This document shows, one piece after another, positions 37,194 through 45,359 of a DNA stretch of 46,100 nt (within the stretch, counting starts at the first letter, position 1; the number at the start of each line of letters is the position of its first letter). The DNA comes from Chitinophaga pinensis. GTDB taxonomy: Bacteria > Bacteroidota > Bacteroidia > NS11-12g > UBA9320. A model generated the notes under the pieces. It did no database searches and had not been told where the DNA came from. It was given only the letters and a program-made list of their open reading frames with translations. The translations under genes and the position numbers were made by a program. The DNA is taken from positions 1 through 46,100 of the forward strand of contig CAMDGU010000020.1 in NCBI GenBank assembly GCA_945897885.1. The letters run 5' to 3'.

Positions 37194-40100
37194 ATGAAAT
37201 ATATTTCCAAAAGTTGTTTGATAGCGCTCTTTTGGGCATTATGGCCCAGCGATTCCCATGCTCAAAATTATAAACCCGCCAACCAAAAATTAATTACTGA
37301 AGCTGATAGCTTAGCTGCCATTTATGAACTAACGGGGGATAGCAGCAGCCGCGGTGCTGCATTAGGTATTTATTTGGATTTGGTAAAAGATGAAAAGAAA
37401 ACCGACCATCCCGATACTCAAGCCATTATCCATAGCGAATTTCAAATTGGCTATATTTATATGAAATGGGGTCAATACCGTTGGGGTATGCAAGCTTTTG
37501 AACGCATGATGAACTATGTTCAGCGGCCCCGAGACCGTGAAACAATCAATAAGGCTATTCCTTATCTTGGCTATTGCTAGCGTGAAACCCGCCTCGAAAA
37601 TTTCACCTTCGACCTGCCCGTGTTTGACAAAACTAAACGCCGTGAGTTTTATTTCCCCATCTCAAAGGTTTATCAACGACATGGCAACACGGTAGAAGTA
37701 TAAATAAACTTTGGAACACATGATGGTATTGGTTTGGGGGCCTATGGCAAAGTGGTAGGAGTAAAAAATGAAGATATAAAAGGGCACAACAATATATGGC
37801 TGGGCAATTGCGAAGTAACAGATATAGCCGAAAGTCAGGCTATACTCAAAATTTTTAATATGCTGGATTGGAAAGACTCTTCCAACATGGTTTTGAAAAA
37901 TGATATGGTAAAACTTCCAATAATGTACCCCACAAGGTTTACCGATTTGCTTACCGAATGTACAATAATGTGTTTTACAACACCGATGGCTATCATTTTT
38001 ATGATTACCGCCTATGGTATATACATGGCAATGATACTTTGCTGAATGACATAATTGAAGCCATGGAATATGATATTCATAAGGCATACACAAAATATGA
38101 AACCAGTGATATTGCTGTACTTAAAACCTTGGGCAAAAGTGGTCGTTTTAAAGATGCAACCTTGTTGGAATCGTTTAAAAAAACTACTAAAAAGGATATT
38201 CTGGATTTTATATACTACTCTTCTTTTTATGCATCAAGTTATTACGGTATCAATTCCTTAATTGTTAAATATGCCGATTGGGTGCTTCTAAACTGCCCTG
38301 TGAGCTATGGTGAATTTTTGAAGCCGCAAAAAATGCCACCACCAATACTGAACTCAAAGAAATTGCGGAGCTTTATAAAGCAGAAATACTGGAGAACGAT
38401 TTGTTTACCTACATGGGTAATGATGAAGAATCGATGGTTGAAAACGGACGAGTTGAATTGGCTTTTGCAATAAATGAAAAACACCGCCAAGTGGCAGCTT
38501 ATATGGATTTGCCGGTGCAGGTGGGGTGGAGCTATTTTTTTAAAGCCCGCATGTTTGACCTTCTAAAGGAACACGATTCGGTAGTAGTTGCATACACTAA
38601 TTCTATTGTTTACTTCAAAAAAAGTAAAGATGTGCGGGGGGAAGGGTTTTCCGTAGGTAACCTTGCAGCTAAATATTATGATTTAGAAAACTACAAAAAA
38701 GCATTAGAATATTACAACAAAAGCTATTTACTAAAGATAAAAATTAAAACCACCGACTCATCTGATTTTTATAAGGGATTAGCCATTGCTTGTCATGGAA
38801 TGGGTGATTGTTACTATACACTTTATCAATATGATTCTGCCTTAATTTCCTATACCAAGGCTACTGTATTTTACAATAAAGCTAATAGTGTAGATGCAAA
38901 ATCCCGCTCGTTAAGTGCTTATAAATACATTGCCAAAATTTTAAAAAAACAAGGCAAATACCCTGAAGCATTTAAGGCTTATGAAGCACAACAGTTTAAA
39001 TACAAACAACTGGGCGACCAAAAAAATGTATCCGAAACTTATGATGATTTAGCCGATGCACTGTAAAGCCTGAATGATTATGAAAAATCCATTGAATACT
39101 ATACCAAAGCATGTAAACTAAAGCTTGAATTAGGCAATATAAATGGAGCGGGTTACTCAATGTCTAACGTGGGTCAGGCTTTATATAATCTCGGTGAATT
39201 TGACAAGGCTATAGCTGCTCATGATAGTTCGGTAAGGCATCGCAGTCAGGCCGATGACCAATCAGGTGTAGCTTATTCTTTAGGGCAAATAGGTTCCTTG
39301 TATAAAGAAAATGGTGAATTCACTAAAGCATCAAGTTATTATGATAAGGCTTTTGAGATTTATAAAAAGTTGGAGGACAAATCTAACCTGGCAGGGATGG
39401 CGAATAAACGAGGCAGTTTGGAAAACAAAATCATGAATTATAGCAACGCTTTAAAATATTATAAGGAAGCGTTGAATCTTTATACTGAACTAAATGATAA
39501 AACAGAAATGGGTAATATGTATTACAATATTGCATCTGTTTTTGCGAAGCAAAATAAATTTAAACCTGCTCTCAGTTTTTTAGATACTGCTCTTATAATT
39601 CAAAAGGAAACCGGAGATCAAGGTGGTCAAATGTACACTCTTAACTATATTGGGAACTTAACAGAAGTAAAGTTTAAAAACAATAAAAAGGCTATGGAAA
39701 TTTATCAGCAATCGCTGCAAATAGCCAAATCTACGGGCAGTCCATATAATATTGCTGTATGTCAAAATTCCATTGGTAATTTATATGCAACTATGGGTAT
39801 GTACTCCAAATCCAAACCTTACCTTGACAGTTGCCAGCAGATATACATTAGAATAAAAGACCGACTTCAACAAACCTATAGTTTAGTAAATATTGGCTAC
39901 CACTATTCCAACATTGGGAATTTTAAGGAGGCTGAACGGAAGTTTAATGAAGCCTTAAAATTATCAGAAGAGATAAAAAATAGCAGTGCTATTGCAAATG
40001 CCCTTTCAGCTTTGGGAGGACTAGGAAGAGTAACCGGACATTTCAAGCAATCGGTTGATTATTTAACCAAAAGTGCTGATTTGTATGCCAAGGCTGATAA

Positions 40101-42315
40101 TCCTTGGGGCGTGGCCAGCAATTATATTGAAATGGGAAATTTATATAATGAGCAATCACGCTATACTGCAGCTGTAGCTTATTATATGAGGGCCGACAGT
40201 ATTTATAAAGTTTTAAATAGCGAATATTTCAGAGGTACTCCACTAAACAATGCTGGAACTATTTTTTACCATCAAGGCAATTACGATAGTTCATTAAGTT
40301 ACTTTTTCCCAGCTTTGGATATTTTAAAACGCTTGGACCCTGAAAGTGAATTCTTTAATTTGATTACTATAAATATTGGTGAAGTATATGTTTCAAAAAA
40401 AGAATATACCGAAGCAGAAAAATGGCTTACTCAAGGCCTTGAAAATTCGTTAAAAAGAGAAGACAAGCGTAATAAAGGCATGGCCTACCGAATGTTTGCC
40501 AAATACAATATTGGTCGCCAAAAGTATAAAGAAGCCGAGGTGCAAATTTTTAAAGCTTTGGAAATAGAAGGTGACTCAGGCGAAATAGAAATAACAACTG
40601 ATATTTATAACCTGATAGGCCGAACCAAATATGAATTGAAAGAATATAAGGAAGCTATAAGATGGTTTGACAAAACAATAAAAAAATCGGAACCCATCAG
40701 ATTTTTAAAGTATTTGTATTCTGCCTATTATTACAGTGCACTTAGTTATAATAATCTTGGGCAAAAGGATACGGCATTAAGACGTATAAAACGAGCCATC
40801 GCTGTAATGGAACAAATAAGCAGTCAGATAACGGGAGGTGCCGAGGCTCAAAAAATGTTCACTTCTGGCGATTTGCAACAAAAAATGTATGAAACTGCAG
40901 TTGAATGGTTATTGGCACAAGGCAAAATAGAAGAAGCCATTACCTACCTTGAACGGGGAAATAATGAAGCTTTAAATGCCAAATTCAAACAACTAAAAGG
41001 CGGCGATACGGGTGCATCTGGCGAGACCAAAAAGGCATTGGCTGAGGCCGAAGAAAAGCAAAAAGCTTTAGAAAAAATCAATGCCGAAATTATTAAGGAA
41101 AAATCAAAACCCGCCGAGCTTCAAAAAACTGAATTGATTAAGGAACTAGAAGCCATACAAAAAGTTGGTCAAAAGGAGTACAAAAATTTTGTTCAGGATT
41201 TGGTTAAAAACAATCCAAAAATTCAGGTTTACATAAGTAATAGTGTTAACCCTGATGATTTCAGAGCTGAGAAAAAGAACATTTCACCTGATATGGCCGT
41301 ATTGCTGTATTTGATGGCTGAAAAAAATCTTTATATTTTTTGTGCCACCAAAGATTCGGTTTTTGCCAAAGTTGTAAATATTGAGAGCAAGGTACTAAGC
41401 AAAAAAATTATGATGGTATACAATTTGGTCCGTAATCCCACTTTTTTGCCAACTACCCGCCGGGGTTCTAAAACAATTAATACCCCAAAAGTAGACAACC
41501 CTGAAAAGGTATTGAACGAAACCAGTAAGGAACTTTATGACTTGCTTATTGGCTCGGTAAAAAATGAAATAGGAGCCAAAACCCGATTAGCAATAATACC
41601 TAACGGCGATTTATACTACTTGCCCTTCCATGCTTTAATAGCTAAAGAGGAGAATAAAAAAGTAACCTATCTGATGGATGAGTTTACAGTATTTTACAGC
41701 AACCGACTTAAGTTCTTGGGTAGTTCTCAATCCATAGATTTAGCAAATTTTCATATAATAGCCGTGGGCAATGCCGATAAAAGTCTTCCTGCAGCTGAGG
41801 TGGAAGTTAATGATATTAAAACCCTATTCCCGAGTTCAATGGTACTTAGAGGAAATGAAGCCACCAAGGAACAATTGATAGCACAATCTGGCAACTTCAA
41901 TGTAATGCACCTTGCCACGCACGGTATCTTGGATTATAACAATTTTGATAGTTCGTATCTTGTAATGGCTAACAATGGCCGATTTACCCTTAATGATATT
42001 GGCGAACTAAATAAAATTGATGAATATACTTTGGTTGCATTATCTGCCTGCGAAACTGCTGTAAAAAATGATTTGGTTGAAGGCTGGCCTCAAACCACCG
42101 CTTCAGCATTTTTAACAGCAGGTGTTGAAACTGTAATAGCTTCACTTTGGCAAGTAGATGACAAAGCCACCAGTTTGCTGATGAAAAAGTTTTATGAAAA
42201 CATTTCAACCATGAACAAAGTGGAAGCATTGCATAAAGCTCAAGTTGATTTGAGCAAAATGCAAGGGTTTAACCATCCTTATTATTGGGCTCCGTTTGCC
42301 TATTACGGAAAATAG
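37194..42315 (+). pseudogene. Broken gene for a secreted TPR-CHAT protein
   Basis: One long gene can be traced from 37194 to 42315. The ATG at 37194 starts a signal peptide (ISKSCLIALFWALWPSDSHA). The reading frame then has an in-frame TAG at 37578 and TAA at 37701, while the same frame keeps coding-like sequence (RETRLENFTFDLPVFDKTKR after the TAG). A frameshift lies between about 37904 and 37925. A second lies near 38315 at a run of five T, where one base added would restore the frame. An in-frame TAA follows at 39064 inside a TPR. From 39067 to the end it is open. Five lesions in the first 1.9 kb indicate decay, or poor assembly, of the 5' part. Confidence 0.8.
39160..42315 (+). CDS. Intact TPR-CHAT protease portion of the broken gene
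   Basis: The 1051 open codons encode about a dozen TPR repeats (residues 1-560, such as FTKASSYYDKAFEIYKKLED and YTAAVAYYMRADSIYKVLNS), a coiled-coil (about 605-690) and a C-terminal CHAT domain (about 740-1051). CHAT is a caspase-like cysteine protease fold found with TPRs. The catalytic pair is present: His921 in HLATHG and Cys964 in LSACETA, with GVETVIASLWQVDD following. The chosen ATG is internal to a TPR and is only the first Met after the stop at 39064; without an upstream signal peptide a product from here would stay in the cytoplasm. Whether it is made at all is unknown. Confidence 0.7.
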   Translation: MSNVGQALYNLGEFDKAIAAHDSSVRHRSQADDQSGVAYSLGQIGSLYKENGEFTKASSYYDKAFEIYKKLEDKSNLAGMANKRGSLENKIMNYSNALKYYKEALNLYTELNDKTEMGNMYYNIASVFAKQNKFKPALSFLDTALIIQKETGDQGGQMYTLNYIGNLTEVKFKNNKKAMEIYQQSLQIAKSTGSPYNIAVCQNSIGNLYATMGMYSKSKPYLDSCQQIYIRIKDRLQQTYSLVNIGYHYSNIGNFKEAERKFNEALKLSEEIKNSSAIANALSALGGLGRVTGHFKQSVDYLTKSADLYAKADNPWGVASNYIEMGNLYNEQSRYTAAVAYYMRADSIYKVLNSEYFRGTPLNNAGTIFYHQGNYDSSLSYFFPALDILKRLDPESEFFNLITINIGEVYVSKKEYTEAEKWLTQGLENSLKREDKRNKGMAYRMFAKYNIGRQKYKEAEVQIFKALEIEGDSGEIEITTDIYNLIGRTKYELKEYKEAIRWFDKTIKKSEPIRFLKYLYSAYYYSALSYNNLGQKDTALRRIKRAIAVMEQISSQITGGAEAQKMFTSGDLQQKMYETAVEWLLAQGKIEEAITYLERGNNEALNAKFKQLKGGDTGASGETKKALAEAEEKQKALEKINAEIIKEKSKPAELQKTELIKELEAIQKVGQKEYKNFVQDLVKNNPKIQVYISNSVNPDDFRAEKKNISPDMAVLLYLMAEKNLYIFCATKDSVFAKVVNIESKVLSKKIMMVYNLVRNPTFLPTTRRGSKTINTPKVDNPEKVLNETSKELYDLLIGSVKNEIGAKTRLAIIPNGDLYYLPFHALIAKEENKKVTYLMDEFTVFYSNRLKFLGSSQSIDLANFHIIAVGNADKSLPAAEVEVNDIKTLFPSSMVLRGNEATKEQLIAQSGNFNVMHLATHGILDYNNFDSSYLVMANNGRFTLNDIGELNKIDEYTLVALSACETAVKNDLVEGWPQTTASAFLTAGVETVIASLWQVDDKATSLLMKKFYENISTMNKVEALHKAQVDLSKMQGFNHPYYWAPFAYYGK

Positions 42316-42443: not shown

Positions 42444-42635
42444 TTAAGCTCTTTTTACGTTTACGGCTGAAGGACCTTTTTTTCCTACTTCTACATCATA
42501 AGTTACTTGGTCGTCTTGAGAAATTTGGTCAATTAAACCGGTTACGTGTACAAAAACCTCTTGGCCATTGTCATTGTTTTTGATAAAGCCATAGCCTTTT
42601 GACGCGTTAAAAAATTTTACTGTTCCTGTGTTCAT
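42444..42635 (-). CDS. Cold-shock domain protein
   Basis: The 63-residue protein is a single cold-shock domain that binds single-stranded nucleic acid and melts RNA structure. RNP1 KGYGFI (14-19) and RNP2 VFVHV (27-31) are both present, in the start MNTGTVKFFNASKGYGFIKN. The length is normal. About 140 bp of AT-rich sequence separate it from the next gene upstream, consistent with the long 5' leader typical of cold-shock genes, though no specific structure was identified. Its general role is RNA chaperone in the cytoplasm. Confidence 0.94.
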   Translation of the reverse strand: MNTGTVKFFNASKGYGFIKNNDNGQEVFVHVTGLIDQISQDDQVTYDVEVGKKGPSAVNVKRA

Positions 42636-42776: not shown

Positions 42777-43268
42777 TTACCTGTCAAAAATGTAAATTCC
42801 GTTAATTGAATAATCCGTTTTTCGAATGTAATATTTACCATTAAATTTTAATTCCTTTAACGGCATATCACAAACACAAGTATTTTGTCCATTCTGATTT
42901 TTAATAATTTCAAAATAATCTGCTATTAAAGTATCTCTCCGCATATTAGGTAAGTGCAAGTAAAATGTTTTTATGTTTTTAACGGCGGATAGATAAACAA
43001 TATCTGCAACTTTTGAAGATATAAAGGACATAGAATCTTTCTGTGAACCTTTCCAAATAGTTCCAGAGAAAAAGGTCTCAGCACCATTTATATTGTAAGA
43101 AAAAAGACTATCATAAATTTTGAATGAGTCACTACATAAAGTATTTAGAATACTTGTGTCTTTAAAAGAAAAATACAAAGGTTTCTGTAATGGCAAATCT
43201 GCTGTTTTGGGTTCATCCTTACAGCCAAAAATACATAAAGCAAGTAATAATACTGATAAATTTTTCAT
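42777..43268 (-). CDS. Small lipoprotein next to the C10 protease
   Basis: The 163-residue product starts with a lipoprotein signal (KNLSVLLLALCIFGC). The rest is a soluble domain of mixed charge with a Cys-x-Cys in NTCVCDMPLKELKFNGKYYI. I do not recognise the family. Its start is 6 bp below the stop of the C10 protease gene, so they are co-transcribed. In other C10 and staphopain loci the neighbour is often a specific inhibitor, so an inhibitor or accessory role is possible, but nothing in the sequence proves it. Confidence 0.75.
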   Translation of the reverse strand: MKNLSVLLLALCIFGCKDEPKTADLPLQKPLYFSFKDTSILNTLCSDSFKIYDSLFSYNINGAETFFSGTIWKGSQKDSMSFISSKVADIVYLSAVKNIKTFYLHLPNMRRDTLIADYFEIIKNQNGQNTCVCDMPLKELKFNGKYYIRKTDYSINGIYIFDR

Positions 43269-43274
43269 GGCTAT

Positions 43275-44606
43275 TTAAGGGTTAAGGTTATATACCATAT
43301 TATTACAATATTTATAATTTCTTCCATTTGGTATAGTCCAGTCCGTATACCTGTACCATCCATTATAATCATTATCATCTGGATCAGGGAGGAGGGTAGT
43401 TGAATCAACCTCATGCCAACCCCAATTCATATGAAACAATTCATAGGTAAACAACCCACAATTATTTTTTGAGGTAACTCCATCACAAACCCAAGCGTGG
43501 CCGTGTTCATAATTATATTTTGGTTTCCAAAATTGCCACCATTTTTTATTTGTTGATGTCTGCACCCTGCAACCATTCAGAACAACAGGCTTGTTATTCA
43601 AAATATTTGAAATAACGGTTGAAGAGTTGTAATTACCATTGTCGCTATTTGAATAATCATACCAAACAGTAAATATATTTTTATAATCGTTCCAACTTGC
43701 TCCTGATTTATCACAACCATAATCCATATTAACCTGATCTCCTACTTGCTTCAGAAACCCTGAAAGATAAGAATTTCCATGATTTAGTGGCATACTACTA
43801 TAGGTATAACCTCCCGTGCAACAACTCGTTTTATTAAAATAATGCAATACCTGCCCAACGGCTACAGCCACACATCCTGCCCACTTGTGTCCACAGACAC
43901 CGCCAGACGAACATGTCGATGTATTGTTATTATATGTACATCCTTGCCCCCATTCAGTTAACAATAATGGCCCCTTTACTTGAGTGTAAGAAGGGCATGG
44001 TGAAGAATAGCCAGTAATTCTTGGCAAACTTGGCTTCCCAACTAGATGGGGTAATAAATTATTTCTAGTTTGTTCTGTCTGCCAAGCATAGACACCTTCT
44101 GGTGTATTATCATGATCTCCAGATCGTAAAAAATTGATGCTTTCTACACTCGCATCAATCCACATTTCTAATCCACCTGGTATTGTATCTGGTGCAAAAC
44201 TTCCAATCGAAGCAAATGCCAATATTGGCTCACATCGGTAGTCAGCACTTAATATAAGCCAACCACCTCCCTCATAATTGAAGACCCACATACAAGGTAT
44301 CTCTTCTTCATCCTCAATTGGATAAACACTTTCAATTTCCCTTTCTTCTTCACCATGATAAGAAGTATCTGCTGCATCCATATGTTCAGCATAAATTTGG
44401 GCAACATCTAAGTCAACAAAAAAACTATCAGCCAAAGTAACATAAGCAACATTGTCAATTTTTTTATCACCTAGATTATTTCTGGCATTAATTTTTTCCT
44501 CTTTACACTGTGGAGTAAAAAGCACAATTAGAAGCAATAAAGTGGTAAAGCGAGAAAAACCTGCTAACCTCTTTATGGTTTGAAGTTTAATGTCTATAAT
44601 TTTCAT
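43275..44606 (-). CDS. C10-family (streptopain-like) cysteine protease precursor
   Basis: The 443-residue protein has an N-terminal hydrophobic segment (TTLLLLIVLFTPQC), a propeptide of the Spi type (about 50-190; WVFNYEGGGWLILSADYRCE) and a C10 papain-like domain. The catalytic Cys is C245 in AGCVAVAVGQVLHYF and the His is H370 in EHGHAWVCDG. The NWGW (394-397) motif in FHMNWGWHEVDS, which holds the third site, is also present. TEWGQGCTYN at 217-226 is the usual start of the mature enzyme. It has many extra Cys residues for the family, perhaps disulfide-linked. It could be a lipoprotein if the Cys at 34 is lipidated, but the lipobox is poor. Confidence 0.88.
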   Translation of the reverse strand: MKIIDIKLQTIKRLAGFSRFTTLLLLIVLFTPQCKEEKINARNNLGDKKIDNVAYVTLADSFFVDLDVAQIYAEHMDAADTSYHGEEEREIESVYPIEDEEEIPCMWVFNYEGGGWLILSADYRCEPILAFASIGSFAPDTIPGGLEMWIDASVESINFLRSGDHDNTPEGVYAWQTEQTRNNLLPHLVGKPSLPRITGYSSPCPSYTQVKGPLLLTEWGQGCTYNNNTSTCSSGGVCGHKWAGCVAVAVGQVLHYFNKTSCCTGGYTYSSMPLNHGNSYLSGFLKQVGDQVNMDYGCDKSGASWNDYKNIFTVWYDYSNSDNGNYNSSTVISNILNNKPVVLNGCRVQTSTNKKWWQFWKPKYNYEHGHAWVCDGVTSKNNCGLFTYELFHMNWGWHEVDSTTLLPDPDDNDYNGWYRYTDWTIPNGRNYKYCNNMVYNLNP

Positions 44607-44697: not shown

Positions 44698-44940
44698 CTA
44701 CGGTACAGGGTCGTGACCATGGCCACCCCATGGATTGCAACTTAAAATACGTTTGGCGGATAGCCTGCTGCCTTTAATTACACCATGTTTCAATAAGGCT
44801 TCTTTAGCATATTGTGAGCAAGTAGGAGTGTAGCGGCATGAGGATGGCAACCAAGGTGAAATGGCTTTTTGATAAAACCAAATGAGTGCCAAAAACGGAT
44901 AGGCCAAAAGCTTAAAAAAATCCTTTATCAATTTAGTCAT
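44698..44940 (-). CDS. yidD: Membrane protein insertion efficiency factor YidD
   Basis: The 80-residue protein matches YidD, which helps insert membrane proteins with YidC. It contains [32 protein letters not shown], and the end [16 protein letters not shown], all conserved. An amphipathic N-terminal helix is visible. It overlaps rnpA by four bases (ATGA), as in the common rpmH-rnpA-yidD cluster. The next gene in many species is yidC; here it is not adjacent. Confidence 0.95.
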
Positions 44941-45359
44941 TCTTTTGTTTCAATTTTTGGGAAATGATGAATTTTTGATTTACTAAACTCATTTAGCAAA
45001 TATTTAATTTTTGAATCTATTTGATCAAAATCGGGAAGCGTGGTAGTGTTATACATTAAACAGCATGCAAACTGACGACCCGGAATTTTGTTGATTACTT
45101 CGTAAAAAGCAGGCTTTTGCAACCTATAGCTTTCTCGCATTAGCCGCTTTATGCGATTGCGGTCATGGGCCTTCTTTATTTTTTTTGCCGGCACAGAGAA
45201 AAGAATTTGAGCCGGCACATTTTCAGTTAGTGAATGCTGTAAAAAAATAAAAGAGAGGGGAAACTTTGAAATCAGTTCACCCTCTCTTTTAAAGATTTTA
45301 TCAATCAGCTTTTGACTGGCTAACCGCTCATTTTTGGATAACGTGTATAACCCTGCCAT
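44937..45359 (-). CDS. rnpA: Ribonuclease P protein component
   Basis: RnpA is the protein subunit of RNase P, which trims the 5' ends of tRNA precursors together with the rnpB RNA. The 140-residue protein has the RNR motif in [18 protein letters not shown] and an N-terminal [17 protein letters not shown]. It is basic as expected. The gene is 20 bp below rpmH and overlaps yidD. No rnpB is seen in the window. Confidence 0.93.

What the first reader, a model, noticed from the sequence alone, without database searches (positions are those of the whole stretch)
42777..44606. C10 protease with a co-transcribed small lipoprotein of unknown type
The C10 precursor has its propeptide and all catalytic residues, and a 163-residue lipoprotein starts 6 bp after its stop. 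C10 and staphopain proteases often come with a dedicated inhibitor gene next to them. This lipoprotein is not recognisable as Spi or staphostatin, so it may be a new inhibitor, anchor or substrate.
Basis: partly seen in the sequence, partly recalled or inferred. Interest (0 to 1): 0.5.

Follow-up and report, generated by a model that had tools for sequence, protein, structure and literature searches.

The report
Protease with its own lipoprotein guard
A freshwater-type Bacteroidota genome carries a membrane-anchored papain-like protease gene directly followed by a small lipoprotein gene of an unnamed family, and this pairing recurs across related genomes in a way that best fits a dedicated inhibitor of the protease.

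Summary
Window 43275-44606(-) encodes a C10 protease with an I69 prodomain, the catalytic residues and a lipobox. A 163-aa lipoprotein starts 6 bp after it. No Pfam or NCBIfam model names the lipoprotein.

In 97 related genomes all 8 short C10 genes have the lipoprotein directly downstream (7 intact, 1 broken); none of 15 long C10 genes does. More widely, 27 of 28 intact lipoprotein-type C10 genes I examined are directly followed by a lipoprotein gene, against 0 of 23 signal-peptidase-I-type short C10 genes (lipoboxes judged by eye). Four of those 27 partners are serpins, a known inhibitor family. Every genome with a window-type C10 keeps an intact lipoprotein; orphan lipoproteins persist where only the C10 tail remains.

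Best reading: a co-transcribed, surface-lipoprotein inhibitor of its C10 partner, not shown biochemically. The layout is known from Bacteroides Bfp/Bfi and Btp/Bti. The sequence family appears new; its fold was not identified. A pseudo-complex model failed.

The parts
43275..44606 (-). C10 (streptopain-type) cysteine protease precursor, 443 aa, predicted lipoprotein
   Evidence: ORF; Pfam Peptidase_C10 7.2e-17 and Inhibitor_I69 9.5e-12; 37-73% identical relatives
44505..44606 (-). signal peptide and lipobox of the protease; Cys34 at 44505-44507, followed by KEE
   Evidence: read from sequence; Cys34 invariant in 8 of 8 relatives
44145..44402 (-). propeptide (I69-like) domain, residues 69-154
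   Evidence: Pfam match
43872..43874 (-). catalytic Cys245 (AGCVAVA)
   Evidence: invariant in 8 of 8; aligned to the streptopain GCVATA motif
43944..43946 (-). Gln221 (WGQ), presumed oxyanion-hole residue
   Evidence: invariant in 8 of 8; role recalled for the papain fold
43497..43499 (-). catalytic His370
   Evidence: invariant in 8 of 8
43425..43427 (-). catalytic Asn394 (MNWGW)
   Evidence: invariant in 8 of 8
43269..43274 (-). 6-bp spacer between the protease stop and the lipoprotein start
42777..43268 (-). 163-aa lipoprotein, proposed cognate inhibitor, unnamed family
   Evidence: AF2 model beta-rich, pLDDT 76, pTM 0.71
43221..43268 (-). lipoprotein signal peptide with lipobox IFGC; Cys16 followed by KDE
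   Evidence: read from sequence; Cys16 invariant in 11 of 11
42858..42884 (-). conserved N-x-C-x-C-x-x-P-L segment (residues 129-137), candidate contact loop
   Evidence: N129, C131, C133, P136, L137 invariant in 11 of 11; coil up to residue 136 in the model; role inferred

Best explanation
The two genes form a co-transcribed protease-inhibitor cassette. The C10 protease is exported as a zymogen, lipidated at Cys34 and held in the outer membrane, probably facing outward. Its small partner is also lipidated and sits in the same membrane, where it binds mature or prematurely activated protease, plausibly with the conserved Cys-bearing loop around residues 129-137, and blocks it. This protects the cell's own envelope proteins. 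Shown here: the genes, their conservation, co-occurrence, clade-specific pairing and asymmetric loss. Inferred: co-transcription, lipidation and topology. Not shown: binding and inhibition.
For: 1) In 97 related genomes the lipoprotein lies directly behind 8 of 8 short C10 genes (one copy broken, G006 C12) and behind 0 of 15 long C10 genes. 2) Those 8 C10 proteins form one clade, support 99/99. 3) The slot behind lipoprotein-type C10 genes generally holds a lipoprotein: 27 of 28 intact ones, 0 of 23 signal-peptidase-I-type short ones. 4) Four of those 27 partners are serpins, Pfam E 5e-87 to 3e-95. 5) Asymmetric decay: all 7 genomes with a window-type C10 keep at least one intact lipoprotein. 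At G006 C17 only the last 16 codons of C10 remain recognisable, identical in peptide to that genome's other C10 tail, with the lipoprotein intact. G000 C15:38980 and G275 C61 also have intact lipoproteins behind C10 tails. Three frameshifted lipoprotein-type C10 genes (L093, L155, L167) still have intact partners. G004 has no C10 and its lipoprotein is frameshifted. 6) The lipoprotein diverges faster than the protease in 19 of 21 comparisons. 7) Precedents: Bfi/Bti with Bacteroides C10 genes and potempins, small lipoproteins said to inhibit the co-expressed protease (PMC7296668).
Against: No binding or inhibition data. The AF2 run on the joined mature protease plus lipoprotein failed (pLDDT 48, protease part unfolded), so it says nothing. 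The fold was not matched to any inhibitor: no Foldseek hit at E<=0.001 and best VIA Z 4.3 to pilin domains. G474 has an intact lipoprotein-type C10 of a neighbouring lineage with no partner. A foldase, activator or adaptor would also be found beside every protease copy. Some orphans (G068, G094, G084, G351) show no C10 tail, so the lipoprotein may have other roles. Two signal-peptidase-I-type C10 genes (L156, L166) also have an adjacent small exported gene.
Confidence: 0.62

Rival explanations
1. The lipoprotein is a dedicated foldase, chaperone or activator needed for the protease to mature at the outer membrane.
For: It is beside every window-type C10 in the 97 relatives and is clade-specific.
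Against: The protease carries its own I69 prodomain, the usual folding aid of C10 enzymes (recalled). Intact lipoproteins remain after the protease is gone or broken. Serpins fill the same slot in other genomes.
Confidence: 0.12
2. The lipoprotein is a surface adaptor or co-anchor that holds the protease or presents substrates to it.
For: Both proteins look lipidated, with negatively charged residues after the Cys, similar to the reported surface export signal (PMC5080379, passages). Some partners of other C10 genes resemble BACON binding domains below cut-off.
Against: The protease has its own lipobox, so no anchor is needed. Orphan copies persist without a protease. Serpin partners are not adaptors.
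Confidence: 0.13
3. The pair is an antibacterial protease with its immunity lipoprotein; orphan lipoproteins protect against the protease of neighbours.
For: Orphan intact copies behind C10 tails, three lipoprotein sites in one genome, two of them full pairs, an empty site in G004 and IS21-like genes beside one copy.
Against: No delivery system or target was identified, and orphans may simply be relics or may guard against a C10 encoded elsewhere in the same genome.
Confidence: 0.1
4. The lipoprotein is unrelated to the protease and only shares an operon (or is a substrate).
For: Orphan copies exist away from any C10.
Against: 8 of 8 adjacency in relatives and clade-specific pairing.
Confidence: 0.03

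Closest known systems
Bfp/Bfi and Btp/Bti (Bacteroides C10 proteases with staphostatin-like putative inhibitors; PMC2873492, PMC3462683)
   Same: C10 lipoprotein zymogen co-transcribed with a small exported or lipoprotein partner a few bp away (btiA 5 bp behind btpA); partner proposed as inhibitor, predominantly beta.
   Different: Bfi/Bti are 116-138 aa and were aligned to staphostatins; the window protein is 163 aa with an NxCxCxxPL motif. I did not hold named Bfi/Bti sequences. Against four partner families from 38 genomes of one genus, profile comparison found at most signal-peptide similarity.
Potempins of Tannerella forsythia KLIKK proteases (PMC7296668, passages)
   Same: Small lipoprotein gene next to a secreted protease, reported to inhibit the co-expressed protease.
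   Different: The proteases are of other families (recalled), and the potempin gene precedes the protease. Sequence relation was not tested directly; no PDB chain matched the family at E below 0.18.
Staphopain/staphostatin and SpeB/Spi
   Same: Papain-like bacterial protease with an adjacent inhibitor gene; the C10 prodomain here matches the Spi family I69.
   Different: Those inhibitors are thought to act in the cytoplasm (PMC3462683, passages), whereas this one is a lipoprotein. No sequence match.
Lipoprotein serpins behind C10 genes (L095, L141, L142, L155)
   Same: Lipidated partner in the same slot directly behind a lipoprotein-type C10.
   Different: Serpin family (Pfam PF00079); unrelated sequence, 413-438 aa.

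Membership tests
Peptidase family C10 | C10 domain over the curated cut-off, with Cys/His and Asn/Gln | tested here: met
   62.7 bits against cut-off 26; catalytic residues invariant in 8 of 8
Peptidase family C10 | N-terminal propeptide | tested here: met
   Inhibitor_I69 45.7 bits against cut-off 25, residues 69-154
Spi (I69) inhibitor, for the lipoprotein | sequence similarity to the C10 propeptide | tested here: not met
   No I69 match for the lipoprotein at E<=1
Staphostatin (I57/I58) | staphostatin sequence family | tested here: not met
   No staphostatin Pfam or PDB-chain match listed
Staphostatin (I57/I58) | lipocalin-like barrel | tested here: inconclusive
   Beta-rich AF2 model; no confident fold match
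Bfi/Bti-type partner of Bacteroides C10 | small exported protein in an operon with a C10 lipoprotein | tested here: met
   6-bp spacing, lipobox, conserved adjacency; transcript not tested
Bfi/Bti-type partner of Bacteroides C10 | sequence homology to Bfi/Bti | tested here: inconclusive
   Named Bfi/Bti not in hand; four unnamed partner families showed no homology beyond signal peptides
Serpin | serpin domain | tested here: not met
   No match for the window lipoprotein; serpins occur in the slot elsewhere
Protease inhibitor (function) | inhibits the cognate protease | not testable with these tools
   Needs an assay
Bacteroidota lipoprotein | signal peptide with lipobox Cys | tested here: met
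   IFG-C16, invariant in 11 of 11; judged by eye, no SignalP
Surface-exported lipoprotein (LES) | negative charges just after the +1 Cys | tested here: inconclusive
   CKDE and CKEE put acids at +3/+4, as in B. fragilis SDDDD; the optimum in C. canimorsus is C-X-K-(D/E)2

The most novel reading that the evidence does not exclude
Lipoprotein-anchored C10 proteases and their downstream lipoproteins form a mobile, modular protease-antidote system across Bacteroidota. Unrelated inhibitor families (serpins, the window's family and several unnamed ones) fill one fixed slot, and solitary antidotes are kept after protease loss as immunity against proteases of neighbours.
Probability: 0.18. Interest if true: 0.68.

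Novelty: new variant of a known kind. Interest (0 to 1): 0.43.

Why it matters
It gives a testable rule: a lipoprotein-type C10 protease comes with its own lipoprotein partner directly downstream, and signal-peptidase-I-type C10 does not. If the partners inhibit, this slot is a systematic source of new cysteine-protease inhibitors of unrelated families, some of them serpins. It would also settle a proposal made for Bacteroides in 2010-2012 on transcription and alignment data.

Tried and rejected
Pfam SUB1_ProdP9 (E 0.0025, under its cut-off) for the lipoprotein, and the weak Pfam matches of its relatives, were rejected as chance. The PDB profile search gave only unrelated chains at E 0.18 or worse. 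Foldseek against PDB gave nothing at E<=0.001. VIA best Z was 4.3 (pilin domains), under the level the tool calls meaningful; staphostatins and potempins are not in the list, which excludes nothing. Folding a joined mature protease plus lipoprotein failed. Weak class-level hits of the lipoprotein profile at E 3.7e-4 to 6.5e-4: L048-L050 read as other lipoproteins that share only the signal peptide; L051 and L055 were read in the wrong frame or strand and stay unjudged. The G050/G074/G091 hits at E about 1e-5 were not examined. A six-frame profile search returned nothing even where a C10 tail is known, so I discard it; the tail test replaces it. Its null draws include the true sites, so its counts are upper bounds. 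G052 (E 2.8e-4, 249-aa ORF) was dropped from the family alignment. In the tree 7 of 44 chosen rows were dropped because a motif cut-out failed: L144, L153, L100, L156, L115, L114, L066. Short-C10 loci were picked by open-frame length, not by neighbours. Set aside as incomplete or near contig ends: L099, L160, L164, L165, L168 and the second C10 of L161. Not fetched: G627 C4, G627 C11, G641 C344 and G277 (short frames), and G626 C155:56892 (579 aa).

Full report
What is there. On the minus strand the order is rnpA (44937-45359), yidD (44698-44940), C10 (43275-44606), lipoprotein (42777-43268), cold-shock protein (42444-42635). The C10 protein has an I69 prodomain and a C10 domain over their Pfam cut-offs. 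It carries the residues Q221, C245, H370 and N394, invariant in 8 of 8 relatives. It also has a conserved Cys34 after a hydrophobic stretch (LLLIVLFTPQC-KEE) and so is probably a lipoprotein. The 163-aa partner (LCIFGC-KDE) starts 6 bp later. It matches no Pfam model over cut-off and no NCBIfam model.

Co-occurrence in relatives. The own genome holds two more relatives of the lipoprotein: one 4 bp behind a second C10 (C15:21115), one alone (C15:38980). In a search of 97 related genomes the lipoprotein occurs in 12 (one of these, G052, I judge unrelated) and C10 in 18. There are two kinds of C10. All 8 short ones (open frames 418-459) have the lipoprotein directly downstream on the same strand; in G006 C12 that copy is broken. 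None of 15 long ones (open frames 865-1015) has it. In a class sample of 395 genomes, 11 match the lipoprotein profile, of which I accept 7: G000, G006, G004, G017, G275, G215 and G351. The other four sit at E 3.7e-4 to 6.5e-4, and three of their loci (L048-L050) read as unrelated lipoproteins. The family is thus small and patchy. A scan of GTDB species genomes found 7 loci, titled as Bacteroidetes, Bacteroidia or 'Chitinophaga pinensis' MAGs. 'Freshwater-type' is my inference from isolate names; no call states the habitat.

The wider rule. I read the surroundings of short C10 genes from the class sample and from 38 genomes of one genus around G212, splitting them by eye into lipoprotein-type and signal-peptidase-I-type. 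Of 28 intact lipoprotein-type C10 genes (8 of them the window type), 27 are followed at -35 to +17 bp by a lipoprotein gene on the same strand; G474 is the miss, and one of the 27 partners (G006 C12) is truncated. Of 23 signal-peptidase-I-type short C10 genes none is followed by a clear lipoprotein, though two (L156, L166) have a small exported gene 11 or 6 bp behind. Three frameshifted lipoprotein-type C10 genes (L093, L155 second copy, L167) all keep intact partners. These loci are not independent and the lipobox calls were manual. The partners belong to several sequence families: four are serpins at Pfam E 5e-87 to 3e-95 (L095, L141, L142, L155), and most have no Pfam family. Profile comparison of the window's family with four of the other families found only signal-peptide similarity or a probability of about 2-4%. 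In a tree of 37 C10 domains the eight C10 proteins paired with the window's family form one clade (99/99), three of the four serpin-paired ones group together (99/91), and the signal-peptidase-I and long ones form a separate clade (98/96). Partner family therefore tracks protease clade for these two groups; L155's serpin-paired C10 is not placed with the other three.

Gain and loss. In G004 the same chromosomal site is empty: yidD and the cold-shock gene are 133 bp apart, and most of that spacer aligns with the stretch behind the lipoprotein in the window and in G006. In G006 the site has the lipoprotein (69% identical) and only the last codons of C10, 16 of 16 residues identical to the tail of that genome's other C10. 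C10 tails also precede the lipoproteins at G000 C15:38980, G004 C1 and G275 C61; no tail is seen at G068, G094, G084 or G351. All 7 genomes with a window-type C10 hold at least one intact lipoprotein. G004, with no C10, has a frameshifted one. In the 97 relatives a window-type C10 without an intact lipoprotein in its genome was not seen, while lipoprotein without C10 is common. That asymmetry is what a guard protein would give; a foldase could give the first half but less easily the second.

The protein itself. Eleven lipoproteins share C16, S94, K100, P107, D112, N129, C131, C133, P136, L137, N143, K150, G157 and F161; the C-terminal half is best conserved. Members with an extra Cys near the N terminus also have a third Cys in the CCC motif, which suggests disulfides (inference). 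AF2 gives a beta-rich domain (pLDDT 76, pTM 0.71) with residues 119-136 as coil. No fold was identified. The lipoprotein is less conserved than its protease in 19 of 21 comparisons, mean 35% against 43%.

Mechanism. Most likely an outer-membrane lipoprotein inhibitor of the co-produced C10 lipoprotein protease. Shown: genes, adjacency, clade-specific pairing, asymmetric loss. Inferred: lipidation, surface exposure (LES-like acids after the Cys, PMC5080379 passages), one transcript, the contact loop. Not shown: inhibition.

Literature. The passages read in PMC2873492 and PMC3462683 describe Bacteroides C10 lipoproteins co-transcribed with small staphostatin-like putative inhibitors; those passages report transcription and alignments, and I saw no inhibition assay in them. 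PMC8264420 (passage) repeats the assignment. PMC7296668 (passages) reports potempins. In my seven paper searches I saw nothing on C10-serpin operons or on this lipoprotein family; the library lacks most subscription journals.

Noticed in passing
window 37734-42315: The TPR/CHAT-like gene next to the cassette is split into several frames here (37958-38473, 38401-39066, 39160-42315), while G006 has one 1709-aa frame (L024:127-5256).
   Followed up: partly
L035:7178-9511 (G006 C12): IS21-like istB and transposase genes lie directly upstream of the C10 copy whose lipoprotein is broken (Pfam).
   Followed up: partly
L095:5096-6349, L141:1518-2759, L142:1242-2510, L155:1478-2794: Lipoprotein serpins overlap or directly follow C10 lipoprotein genes, an arrangement I did not find described in my paper searches.
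   Followed up: partly
L026 about 2400-2870 (G003 C23): A second, decayed copy of the lipoprotein lies behind the intact one.
   Followed up: partly
L144 and L153: Two partner-bearing C10 homologues lack my catalytic-Cys motif in the tree script and may be inactive, as reported for BtpZ; not checked further.
   Followed up: no
L160:1005-1454: A META-domain lipoprotein (Pfam 7.3e-8) lies 45 bp behind an incomplete C10 in G376.
   Followed up: no
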